Below, piece by piece: positions 42,164 through 44,938 of a stretch of DNA of 64,000 nucleotides. The stretch lies in the NCBI GenBank assembly GCA_020629715.1, contig JAHDCU010000008.1, positions 62,001-126,000 on the forward strand. The letters run 5' to 3'. Numbering within the stretch: the first letter of the stretch is position 1; the number at the start of each line of letters is the position of its first letter. This DNA comes from Saprospiraceae bacterium (GTDB lineage: Bacteria > Bacteroidota > Bacteroidia > Chitinophagales > Saprospiraceae). The notes beneath the pieces were generated by a model. That model had not been told where the DNA came from. It worked only from the letters and a program-made list of their open reading frames with translations, and made no database searches. A program made the translations under genes and the position numbers.

Positions 42164-42757
42164 ATGAACGATATAGAAAAATTAAGTTATAGCCTTGGAT
42201 TGAATATTGCAGCTAGTCTGTTAAAGCAGGGATTCGAGGATCTAGATGCGCAGATGCTTGGTCAAGCAATAGGGGATGTTATGAGTGGTGGAAATCTCAA
42301 AATGGATACTCACGAGGCAGGTGCTTTTCTCAATGATCACTTCAGTAAAATTCAAGCTAAAAAGCATGAAGGTGCAATCAAAGCAGGAAAGGACTTTCTG
42401 ATAGCCAATAGTAAGAAAGAAGGTGTTATCACTTTACCTAGCGGACTTCAGTATCAAGTAATGAAAGAGGGAGCGGGTATCAAACCAACAATTAATAGTA
42501 CGGTAACTACACATTACCATGGTACTACAATTGATGGTAAAGTATTCGATAGTTCAGTACAGCGAGGTCAGCCAGCATCCTTCCCAGTGAATGGAGTGAT
42601 CGCAGGATGGACAGAAGCCCTTCAATTAATGCCTTTAGGCTCTAAGTGGAAGCTCTTTGTACCATCCGATTTGGCCTATGGCGAAAGAGGTGCCGGCGGA
42701 GATATAGGACCACATGCAACTTTGATTTTTGAGGTGGAGCTATTAGAGATTAAGTAG
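42164..42757 (+). CDS. FKBP-type peptidyl-prolyl cis-trans isomerase
   Basis: The 197-residue protein has an N-terminal helical dimerisation domain (about 1-80; LSYSLGLNIAASLLKQGFED) and a C-terminal FKBP domain (about 105-197; VTTHYHGTTIDGKVFDSS and FVPSDLAYGERGAG). It resembles E. coli FklB/FkpA. There is no signal peptide, so it is cytoplasmic like FklB. It assists folding by isomerising prolyl bonds. The gene stands alone. A 14-base perfect inverted repeat spans its stop codon. Confidence 0.92.
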   Translation: MNDIEKLSYSLGLNIAASLLKQGFEDLDAQMLGQAIGDVMSGGNLKMDTHEAGAFLNDHFSKIQAKKHEGAIKAGKDFLIANSKKEGVITLPSGLQYQVMKEGAGIKPTINSTVTTHYHGTTIDGKVFDSSVQRGQPASFPVNGVIAGWTEALQLMPLGSKWKLFVPSDLAYGERGAGGDIGPHATLIFEVELLEIK

Positions 42758-42781
42758 ATATTCATACAATCTCTAATAGCT
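42738..42781 (+). terminator. Hairpin spanning the FKBP stop codon
   Basis: AGCTATTAGAGATT and AATCTCTAATAGCT are perfect 14-base inverted repeats around 16 bases that contain the stop codon. Only a weak T-tract follows, so termination or mRNA 3' protection are both possible. Confidence 0.6.
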
Positions 42782-42817
42782 TATTAAATATCATTTAGAT
42801 AAATAAATGACAAATTT

Positions 42818-43402
42818 TTATTCCTGATCCAATCTCCATAGTTGGTTTCCTCCATCTTTAAATCCAATCACTCCATTCGTTTGATTATAGTATAATGCAG
42901 AAAAAGCAGTCTGATTATCCGCTGAAACAGCGTATACATCATTGAAACTTATATCTATTAGCTCATGAGTGGTGTAGAAATCAGTTGTACTAGTGGAAAA
43001 ATGTGTTCCATCTCTTGGATTTATATCCATCCAAATACTGTTAGATCGAAAAGGCATCAGTTTGATGTTTAGGCTTGGATTTATCGTATTTAAATCACTT
43101 GAAACAAACGCTGAACCTAATAGAATTATTTCGATATCATTTTCGCTGGAATTTAATTGTATGAAGTAGTCATCGAGTATATAGGTAGAATTGTTGGGCA
43201 ATTCATTTTCAATAGCTCTCTTTTCGTAAGTAGTAACAAAATTAATTTTCTCGCCATCAGAATTAACGAATGTTAAATTGGGGTTGTTTTTATAAACAGC
43301 TGTAAAGTTATCTATTTGAGGTAGATTAATTACATCATCAGATCCATCCTTTGAGCAACTACAGAGGAATGCTATTATTAATAGGTAAAATACTTTATTC
43401 AT
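42818..43402 (-). CDS. Hypothetical lipoprotein
   Basis: The start at 43402 gives a lipoprotein signal ending in FLCSC (C16 lipidated) and a product of 194 residues. Upstream codons in frame (to 43480) would add 26 residues before the signal and are rejected. The rest is predicted beta-rich, with no domain I recognise. It follows the CX3C-repeat gene by 16 bases on the same strand and is probably translated with it. Both genes look more AT-rich than their neighbours. Function unknown. Confidence 0.6.
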   Translation of the reverse strand: MNKVFYLLIIAFLCSCSKDGSDDVINLPQIDNFTAVYKNNPNLTFVNSDGEKINFVTTYEKRAIENELPNNSTYILDDYFIQLNSSENDIEIILLGSAFVSSDLNTINPSLNIKLMPFRSNSIWMDINPRDGTHFSTSTTDFYTTHELIDISFNDVYAVSADNQTAFSALYYNQTNGVIGFKDGGNQLWRLDQE

Positions 43403-43418
43403 TTTATAATTTTTTATG

Positions 43419-44045
43419 TTATCCGATAATTTCACAATATTCAATATCAATTGGACAAAAACGTTGATTACCATTTTCATCAGTGAACCTCATAGTTGCA
43501 GTTGCCCAATAACAAACATTAATTCCATCAATAATTTCAGTCCAATTTTCATCCAAGGTTAAACAATTCCAATCAGAAAAATCTTCATAGCTTTCGACTA
43601 CTCTTGCTGTTTGTATCCAATTATCTCTTTGGGTTCTGGGTCCTGAAGATATTGGAGCAGTTGCTGCTTCGATCCGATATTCAATACTTATGTTGCTAGC
43701 GGTGATGTCATAAAATTGAAAGCATTCTGCGTTGCAGTCACTCCATTCTTGTGGATCACTCCCTAATAATTGTCCACAATAATCATCGCAATTAGATCCT
43801 CCTTCGTAATAACAGTCCTTCATACACTCTTCCATATTTTCATCATAGCAATCTTGAATACATTGTTCCTTTTCTAGGCAGCTCTGTTGAAGTTCTAAAC
43901 TTCCGACTAAACATTTATGACAAGGACTTATATTAAAACAAACCTGATTAGTTTCTGGATTATACTCAATACTGGTTAAATCTTGAGCAAATGAAGAGTT
44001 GATAACTAGCAGAAATAGTGTTAAAAGAGATAAATTTTTTTTCAT
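43419..44045 (-). CDS. Secreted cysteine-rich protein with four CX3C motifs
   Basis: No family is recognised. The 208-residue precursor has a signal peptide (about 1-20, cleavage at SFA before QDL). The mature part has 16 cysteines, an even number, suggesting disulfides. CX3C pairs stand at 62/66, 74/78, 86/90 and 104/108, the first three spaced exactly 12 residues apart, plus CHKC at 42-45. The C-terminal half (about 110-208) has fewer cysteines and looks beta-like. The next gene downstream encodes a lipoprotein, so the two may work together at the cell surface. Function unknown. Confidence 0.62.
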   Translation of the reverse strand: MKKNLSLLTLFLLVINSSFAQDLTSIEYNPETNQVCFNISPCHKCLVGSLELQQSCLEKEQCIQDCYDENMEECMKDCYYEGGSNCDDYCGQLLGSDPQEWSDCNAECFQFYDITASNISIEYRIEAATAPISSGPRTQRDNWIQTARVVESYEDFSDWNCLTLDENWTEIIDGINVCYWATATMRFTDENGNQRFCPIDIEYCEIIG

Positions 44046-44238
44046 ACGAATAATTTAATATTAAGAAAAATGAAATTCAGATTTCGATTAAGACTAATAG
44101 TCAAATTATCTAAGAACATAAGATTAACCCAAACCCTTACCACTAACATAATAATAAAATTTAATTTAAGAAATTCCAAGATTAATAAACAGAAATAACT
44201 ACGTTAATTATAACCTTATGAAGACTAATTTATATTCA

Positions 44239-44938
44239 TTAAAGCAAATCTAATAGTCCCATTAAGTTCTCACAACTCAAAAATCGATCATCTTTAACTG
44301 GTGATTCAACTTCCTCATACGCCCAAGATGTATGGAAGGGAATATGAATTGCTGATCCACCCAGCTCTATGACAGGTAGTATGTCAGATTTGATAGAGTT
44401 ACCTATCATCAGAAACTCAATAGGATCAATGTCTAAGTGATCAATCAGCTTTTGGTAATTGACGACCTTTTTATTAGACATGATTTCTATGTGATGAAAG
44501 TATTTACTTAGTCCTGATAGTTCTAGTTTTCGCTCTTGATCTAGTAGATCTCCCTTTGTAGCTACGATGATTCTATAGTCTTGCTGCAAGCTTTTCAGTA
44601 CAGTTTCAATGTCGGGTAGGAGCTCTACAGGTGCATGGAGTTGCTTCCTTCCGATATCTATAATTTGCTGTATTGTAGAGGCATGAACGCGGCCATTACT
44701 TATTTTAATAGCCGTTTCGATCATGGATAGCATTAAAGGCTTTCACTCCAAAACCATAATCAGGGAGATTGGCGATTTCAATCTTTAGCAGTTCTTCGCT
44801 TAGACTATCTTCATCCGTGATATATGGGCGCATGAGTTCAAAGAATTGCTTTTCTGATTCTTTAAAATAAGGTTCATTGACCCACAAGGTATCATCTGCA
44901 TCGAATGCAATGACTTTAATTTGAGATTGCTTTATCAT
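44239..44938 (-). pseudogene. HAD-superfamily hydrolase interrupted by a one-base frameshift
   Basis: Two overlapping reading frames together encode one HAD phosphatase of about 230 residues. The first (44938-44705) starts with IKVIAFDADDTLWVNEPYF, containing the DxD nucleophile motif. The second (44733-44239) contains ATKGD (motif II), KKVVNY with the motif III Lys, and MIGNSIKSDILP (motif IV). The join lies at the TTTAATG between KAF and MLSMIE; removing one A restores KAFMLSMIETA. Either the gene is inactive, a programmed slip occurs, or the read has an indel. All catalytic motifs are otherwise intact, so the lesion is recent or artificial. Confidence 0.85.

What the first reader, a model, noticed from the sequence alone, without database searches (positions are those of the whole stretch)
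43419..44045. Secreted protein with four CX3C motifs, three spaced exactly 12 residues apart
The cysteine pattern C-X3-C-X7 repeats at 62, 74 and 86, then a fourth CX3C at 104. Twin CX3C motifs are known from helical-hairpin disulfide proteins of the mitochondrial intermembrane space; a tandem series in a secreted Bacteroidota protein looks unusual. With the lipoprotein encoded 16 bases downstream it could form a surface pair. The genes are AT-rich and the neighbourhood is accessory.
Basis: partly seen in the sequence, partly recalled or inferred. Interest (0 to 1): 0.58.

Follow-up and report, generated by a model that had tools for sequence, protein, structure and literature searches.

The report
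Secreted cysteine-hairpin protein with partner lipoprotein
A bacterium encodes a small exported-looking protein that is probably stapled into a helical hairpin by many disulfide bonds, next to a gene for a membrane-anchored partner; this unnamed two-gene unit recurs in several related genera and matched no family in the libraries searched.

Summary
Window 43419-44045 (-) encodes a 208 aa exported-looking protein with 16 Cys and CX3C at residues 62, 74, 86 and 104; a lipoprotein gene follows after 16 bases. Profile searches and context reading gave 10 loci in 9 of 298 genomes of the same family; at all 10 the same lipoprotein family follows, including 6 clear loci found without using the lipoprotein. 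Homologues (19-27% identical) keep two to four CX3C and mostly a C-terminal Cys motif; the exact 12-residue spacing is private to this protein. Cys-protein and lipoprotein distances correlate after correction for gyrA (partial Mantel r 0.52, P 0.003, n = 9). The lipoprotein is often alone (hits in 71 of 298 genomes, many partial). Pfam and NCBIfam (10 pairs) and PHROGs and PADLOC (3 pairs) show no credible match; the only suggestive outside similarity, not significant, is to plant alpha-hairpinins. It is not a small-Tim protein by sequence. Most likely: an envelope or extracellular binding protein with a disulfide-stapled hairpin, held or tolerated by its dedicated lipoprotein; toxin plus immunity lipoprotein is a serious rival. 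Function, export and disulfides are inferred; structure prediction was too poor to help.

The parts
43419..44045 (-). Gene of the Cys-rich exported-looking protein (208 aa, 16 Cys, four CX3C)
   Evidence: homologues at 9 further loci
43986..44045 (-). N-terminal signal-peptide-like stretch (residues 1-20, ...NSSFAQ)
   Evidence: read from the sequence; crude hydrophobicity rule only, no signal-peptide predictor was available
43722..43862 (-). CX3C block, residues 62-108 (CX3C at 62, 74, 86, 104)
   Evidence: CX3C pairs recur in homologues, spacing variable
43422..43565 (-). C-terminal part, residues 161-208 (C161, C178, C197, C204)
   Evidence: C178 and C197 invariant in 10 of 10 rows, C204 nearly so; the end of this tail is what is left in G175 and G054
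43403..43418 (.). 16-base gap between the two genes
42818..43402 (-). Partner lipoprotein gene (194 aa, lipobox-like LCSC at residues 13-16); the ORF lister extends it to 43480 from an upstream ATG inside the Cys gene
   Evidence: lipobox read by eye

Best explanation
A two-gene exported unit. The first gene makes a Sec-exported protein with short beta strands, a central block of paired CX3C motifs that folds as an antiparallel alpha-helical hairpin stapled by disulfides, and a C-terminal beta hairpin with further disulfides. The second gene makes an envelope lipoprotein that is its dedicated binding partner and keeps it at, or lets it act from, the cell surface. The stapled hairpin would be a protease-resistant binding surface, working like a plant alpha-hairpinin without being one. 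Shown here: the recurring gene pair, the Cys pattern, correlated divergence, and dN below dS in one paralogue pair. Inferred: export, disulfide pairing, the lipoprotein contact, surface location and the binding role.
For: The lipoprotein gene follows at 10 of 10 kept loci, same strand, gap 12-42 bases at nine and 131 at one. Three loci were found through or with the lipoprotein (G017, G034; G289 is a weak, partial Cys hit kept partly for its neighbour); the window is the start point; the other six (G039; G101, G259, G274 twice, G043) were found by the Cys protein alone and all six have it (G039). Inner CX3C loop X10-13 in 7 of 10 rows. Arm lengths go together in six lineages: both short (X6/X6) in G034, G039, G259; both long (X15-16/X10) in G101, G274, G043, as an antiparallel hairpin would need. 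Invariant and nearly invariant columns of the 10-row alignment are all Cys. Cys-lipoprotein distance correlation r 0.48 (P 0.005), partial on gyrA 0.52 (P 0.003), n = 9. dN below dS in the divergent parts of the G274 Cys and lipoprotein genes. Suggestive outside similarity: PDB alpha-hairpinins 6wql VBP-1 E 0.62, 9q1l E 3.8, 7lvf E 9.4; Pfam Vicilin_N E 0.037 in 1 of 10 members.
Against: None of these similarity scores is significant, and unrelated entries score as well or better (zinc-finger chain 2ctd E 0.19; CttA_N E 0.036). AlphaFold2 from single sequences is poor (mean pLDDT 46 and 35) and its fold search has no match with E <= 0.001. The window protein is the odd one out (X7/X7/X13), so the arm-length rule fails for it: one-sided Fisher 1/20 without it, 4/35 = 0.11 with it (my arithmetic; G274 counted once, G017 and G289 not scorable). 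Per-protein shuffles are not significant at 5% for G034, G043 and G289 (P 0.12, 0.09, 0.13). Only six of 10 rows begin with a clear signal-like stretch (read by eye); G101, G043, G289 do not and G039 has no usual start codon. No VKOR in the genome (control 3 of 14) and no even-Cys bias in crude exported ORFs (24 of 54), so the oxidation route is unknown. Correlated divergence is expected of any two linked genes, and the lipoprotein also follows gyrA (r 0.49, P 0.004) while the Cys protein does not (r 0.07, P 0.36).
Confidence: 0.45

Rival explanations
1. Antagonism pair: the Cys protein is an exported anti-bacterial effector and the lipoprotein is the immunity protein that protects the producer.
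For: Order effector then lipoprotein. Asymmetry: no kept Cys protein without the lipoprotein (0 of 10 loci), many lipoproteins without the Cys protein (hits in 71 of 298 genomes, against 9 of 298 with a Cys protein). In G175 only the last part of a Cys gene is left beside an open lipoprotein gene. Lipoprotein homologues without Cys partner occur in tandem arrays (three each in G397 and G407). Sporadic, at differing sites.
Against: No credible toxin, effector or immunity family match (on 3 of the 10 pairs). No variable toxin-like domain. dN below dS in the only close paralogue pair. The window protein is acidic (36 D+E, 9 K+R after residue 20). Many of the 71 lipoprotein hits cover only the C-terminal third or the signal peptide, so the asymmetry is partly inflated. 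The same asymmetry is expected if the Cys protein merely needs its anchor.
Confidence: 0.28
2. Metal binding or metal storage through the CX3C pairs (like copper storage proteins or reduced small Tims).
For: CX3C pairs on helices can bind copper or zinc (copper: recalled); reduced small Tims bind zinc (PMC3759932, passages).
Against: No metal family among the Pfam hits of 10 members at E up to 10 (HMMER's filters drop most weak matches); no copper-storage, Cox17 or Tim chain among the 4 PDB matches at E up to 10; an exported place, where disulfides are usual.
Confidence: 0.1
3. Secreted protease inhibitor or other defence protein of the alpha-hairpinin kind, with the lipoprotein as anchor.
For: Faint hairpinin similarity; some alpha-hairpinins inhibit proteinases (PMC11591084, passages).
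Against: The similarity is not significant and mostly Cys spacing; no inhibitory loop was looked for or identified.
Confidence: 0.1

Closest known systems
Plant alpha-hairpinins (vicilin N-terminal hairpins, VBP-1)
   Same: CX3C-Xn-CX3C pattern and, if the model is right, an antiparallel helix-loop-helix closed by disulfides; the only hits that align CX3C on CX3C, though not significant
   Different: Plant peptides with 4 or 6 Cys in the core (PMC11591084, passages); here a ~190 aa exported-looking bacterial protein with up to four CX3C pairs, flanking parts and a lipoprotein partner
Mitochondrial small Tim proteins (twin CX3C)
   Same: Two CX3C around a loop of 11-13 residues in 6 of 10 rows
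   Different: No sequence match, bacterial export-like signal, additional CX3C pairs and domains; no evidence of chaperone rings
Effector plus immunity-lipoprotein pairs of Bacteroidota (recalled as a kind)
   Same: Small exported-looking protein directly upstream of a lipoprotein gene, sporadic distribution, partner often alone
   Different: No effector domain found; no killing or protection data; no credible family match

Membership tests
Small Tim (twin CX3C) | Match to the family's profile or to solved small Tims | tested here: not met
   0 of 10 members match it in Pfam at E up to 10; no Tim chain among the 4 PDB matches
Small Tim (twin CX3C) | Two CX3C separated by a loop of about 11-16 residues (range recalled) | tested here: inconclusive
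   X11-13 in G034, G039, G259, G101, G274 (twice); X10 after a CX4C in G043; X17 in G017; X7, X7, X13 in the window protein
Alpha-hairpinin | C-X3-C-X4-20-C-X3-C motif (definition from PMC11591084, passages) | tested here: met
   window protein and the full-length homologues except perhaps G043's inner pair
Alpha-hairpinin | No three or more further cysteines outside the core motif (exclusion rule in PMC11591084) | tested here: not met
   16 Cys in the window protein
Alpha-hairpinin | Significant sequence match | tested here: not met
   best E 0.62 in PDB, Vicilin_N 0.037 in 1 of 10
Alpha-hairpinin | Helix-loop-helix with disulfides between the helices | tested here: inconclusive
   single-sequence model has separate short helices over the CX3C block, mean pLDDT 46
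Metal-binding Cys families (copper storage, Cox17/CHCH) | Profile or PDB sequence match | tested here: not met
Effector-immunity pair | Conserved adjacent partner gene | tested here: met
   10 of 10 kept loci
Effector-immunity pair | Toxic activity neutralised by the partner | not testable with these tools
   needs bench work
Effector-immunity pair | Match to a known effector, toxin, immunity or defence family | tested here: not met
   Searches (10 pairs; 3 pairs): no credible match. Best lipoprotein hits BSAP5b E 0.0039 (1 of 10), EexN E 0.0066 (1), LytA E 0.0071 (2), Riean_0653 E 0.16 (4 of 10); for the window lipoprotein the Riean_0653 match covers residues 1-30 only; I take these as signal-peptide matches. 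PADLOC PDC-S06 E 0.045 for the window Cys protein

The most novel reading that the evidence does not exclude
A bacterial, independently evolved alpha-hairpinin-like weapon or recognition protein: an exported disulfide-stapled multi-CX3C hairpin protein whose cognate lipoprotein gives self-immunity, with the widespread lone lipoproteins acting as immunity reservoirs.
Probability: 0.22. Interest if true: 0.7.

Novelty: new variant of a known kind. Interest (0 to 1): 0.45.

Why it matters
It defines an unnamed, conserved gene pair in a bacterial family and gives a testable case of a CX3C helical hairpin arising outside mitochondria and plants. If the lipoprotein proves to be an immunity protein, many lone lipoproteins of these genomes would gain a function; if it is an anchor, it adds a disulfide-rich scaffold to the surface proteins of these bacteria.

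Tried and rejected
Single-protein search of species genomes gave one hit (L001), rejected: it shares an octapeptide with an unrelated 331-residue frame. Plasmids and viral contigs: nothing. Weak profile hits dropped as chance: G036 (its ORF has 2 Cys) and G047 (two stops inside, opposite to a longer ORF); G430 and G616 (three stops inside). G289 (E 9e-4, N-terminal half missing) was kept, partly because the lipoprotein follows; this is circular for that locus. Idea of diversifying selection between the two G274 copies: rejected, because the pattern is a mosaic of identical and divergent stretches with dN below dS in the divergent ones, as gene conversion gives. Fold search with the poor model: no match with E <= 0.001. 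No fold search was run for the lipoprotein (mean pLDDT 35). Alignment-based folding was not tried, because the tool admits only window sequences and loci of certain other tools, and my homologues came from the genome search and the fetch from genomes. The empty insertion site could not be read: the same-genus contig ends 303 bases after the FKBP gene. Papers: searches showed no description of this family among the titles and abstract starts listed (15, 12, 12, 0, 6 and 5 listed; several searches held far more papers than were listed); PMC11591084 and PMC3759932 were read in passages only, the others seen only as listings.

Full report
The observation. The ORF at 43419-44045 (-) is 208 aa with 16 Cys; CX3C starts at residues 62, 74, 86 and 104. 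Shuffling residues 21-208 gives four or more CX3C in 2.6% of 200,000 shuffles and three at 12-residue spacing in 0.0035%; the second figure is post hoc. Against 348 crude ORFs from 362,524 bases of the same genome plus the window, it has the highest Cys density of the 70 with a crude export signal (among those of at least 100 aa), and 4 of 348 have three or more CX3C, two of these over 1000 aa. The next gene, a lipoprotein at 42818-43402 (-), starts 16 bases downstream. G+C is 0.28-0.36 in the six 500-base windows from 42750 to 44499.

Homologues. It is single-copy in its own genome. A single-sequence search of 100 relatives, its own genome among them, found one other genome, G039. The lipoprotein was found in 9 of the same 100, and in G039 both lie together. 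Reading the neighbourhoods of the lipoprotein hits gave further Cys-rich genes in G017 and G034. A profile of four proteins then hit 11 of 298 genomes of the family; after reading the contexts I keep 9 genomes and 10 loci (G000, G017, G034, G039, G043, G101, G259, G274 twice, G289), in 8 genera, and drop G036 (its ORF has 2 Cys) and G047 (two stops inside). Homologues are 19-27% identical to the window protein. Searches of 396 genomes of the order and 395 of the phylum, in overlapping draws, gave no credible member outside the family; a remnant appeared in G175. The search scores only the best 7-10 candidates per genome, so members may be missed.

The pair. At 10 of 10 kept loci the lipoprotein gene follows on the same strand, 12-42 bases away at nine and 131 bases at one. 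Two of these were found through the lipoprotein (G017, G034) and G289 was kept partly for it; the six found by the Cys protein alone (G039, G101, G259, G274 twice, G043) all have it. Uncorrected distances of the two proteins correlate (Mantel r 0.48, P 0.005; n = 9), also after removing gyrA distance (0.52, P 0.003), and without G289 or without G289 and G043 (partial r 0.59 and 0.64); Cys-protein distance does not follow gyrA (0.07, P 0.36) but lipoprotein distance does (0.49, P 0.004). Any two linked genes may correlate so. The lipoprotein is wider spread: hits in 71 of 298 family genomes at E up to 0.001, many of them to the C-terminal third or the signal peptide only, and in 23 of 391 order genomes at E up to 1e-6, 19 in the same family and 4 in one other. 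Of the 19 lipoprotein neighbourhoods fetched, none shows an ORF of at least 70 aa with two or more CX3C (ORFs lying within longer ones were not shown) and one, G175, keeps only the tail of a Cys gene; some of the 19 lie at contig ends or hold broken lipoproteins. Of the 11 fetched, three have the Cys gene, one (G054) only its tail, seven none. A tree of 10 paired and 16 unpaired lipoproteins needs 6 changes of label (shuffled mean 8.2; 41-44 of 500 shuffles as low), with the window's lipoprotein beside an unpaired one (G244; 99/98); many branches are long or open. I infer that the Cys gene comes and goes more readily than the lipoprotein.

Anatomy. Six of 10 rows have four CX3C, three have three, and the partial G289 two. 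CX2C before the block occurs in 6 of 10 rows and C-X-CX3C as its start in 6 of 10; the inner loop is 10-13 in 7 of 10; C-X13-15-(C)C-X6-C near the end in 7 of 10. The window protein departs from this with C-X5-CX3C, loops of 7, 7 and 13, and X18 near the end. G034 ends the block with CX5C, G043 has one CX4C. The two outer arms are both short (G034, G039, G259) or both long (G101, G274, G043), as expected if CX3C 1 pairs with 4 and 2 with 3; the window protein does not fit (one-sided Fisher 0.05 without it, 0.11 with it, my arithmetic). Invariant columns are Cys 108, 178 and 197, and the nearly invariant ones are also Cys. Single-sequence AlphaFold2 suggests strands, short helices over the CX3C block and a C-terminal beta hairpin, but with mean pLDDT 46, and below 50 from residue 71 of the mature protein on; the lipoprotein model at 35 is of no use.

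Selection. The two G274 blocks, four genes each, are mosaics: codons 41-120 of the Cys gene are identical, codons 161-200 have dS 1.09 and dN 0.32; the lipoprotein shows the same kind of mosaic with dN below dS. This points to translated genes under constraint with gene conversion, not to diversifying selection. It is one pair of copies in one genome.

Known families. Pfam and NCBIfam (window pair; all 10 pairs) and PADLOC and PHROGs (3 of 10 pairs) give only scattered chance-level hits. In the PDB the best hit of the Cys profile is a zinc-finger chain (E 0.19), then three alpha-hairpinins of seeds (E 0.62, 3.8, 9.4) that align over the inner CX3C pair (the third alignment was not printed, only its range). 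Alpha-hairpinins are defined by C-X3-C-X4-20-C-X3-C with a helix-loop-helix and two disulfides (PMC11591084, passages); small Tims by a twin CX3C with C1-C4 and C2-C3 disulfides (PMC3759932, passages). I read the likeness as one of fold principle, not descent.

Verdict. A real, conserved, unnamed gene pair with a CX3C hairpin-type Cys pattern. The likeliest role is a stapled binding protein with a dedicated lipoprotein partner; toxin plus immunity is the main rival. Shown: pair, pattern, distribution. Inferred: export, disulfides, contact and function.

Noticed in passing
window 44239-44938 (-): A HAD-type hydrolase lies in two overlapping frames (44239-44733 and 44705-44938), which looks like a broken gene; HAD_2 matches the larger piece, nothing the smaller.
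   Followed up: partly
window 42757; L109: DNA similarity to a same-genus genome (78-88%) stops at the last base of the FKBP-type gene, just before the pair; nothing of window 42758-46100 matches that genome's DNA, but its contig ends 303 bases later.
   Followed up: partly
L019 2367-4027: In G054 the tail of a Cys protein and a lipoprotein in two frames sit inside what reads as a subtilase-like gene (my reading, no family search), as if inserted.
   Followed up: partly
L042, L043, L084: G274 carries two four-gene copies of the block and a third, partial one next to a transposase-like ORF (my reading); mosaic identity points to gene conversion; two further genes have a Por_Secre_tail match, one of them below the cut-off.
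   Followed up: partly
L151 1769-3882, L152 2474-5329: Tandem arrays of three lipoprotein homologues without a Cys partner in another family of the order.
   Followed up: no
L090 1955-2719: A lipoprotein homologue follows directly on a fragment that reads like a PorP/SprF start (recalled, no family search).
   Followed up: no
own genome: No VKOR (PF07884) match in the genome (the search rings in 3 of 14 control genomes); other disulfide-forming enzymes were not sought.
   Followed up: no
L114 992-9292 (G000 contig C14): A 2766 aa exported-looking ORF with 109 Cys on the same contig.
   Followed up: no
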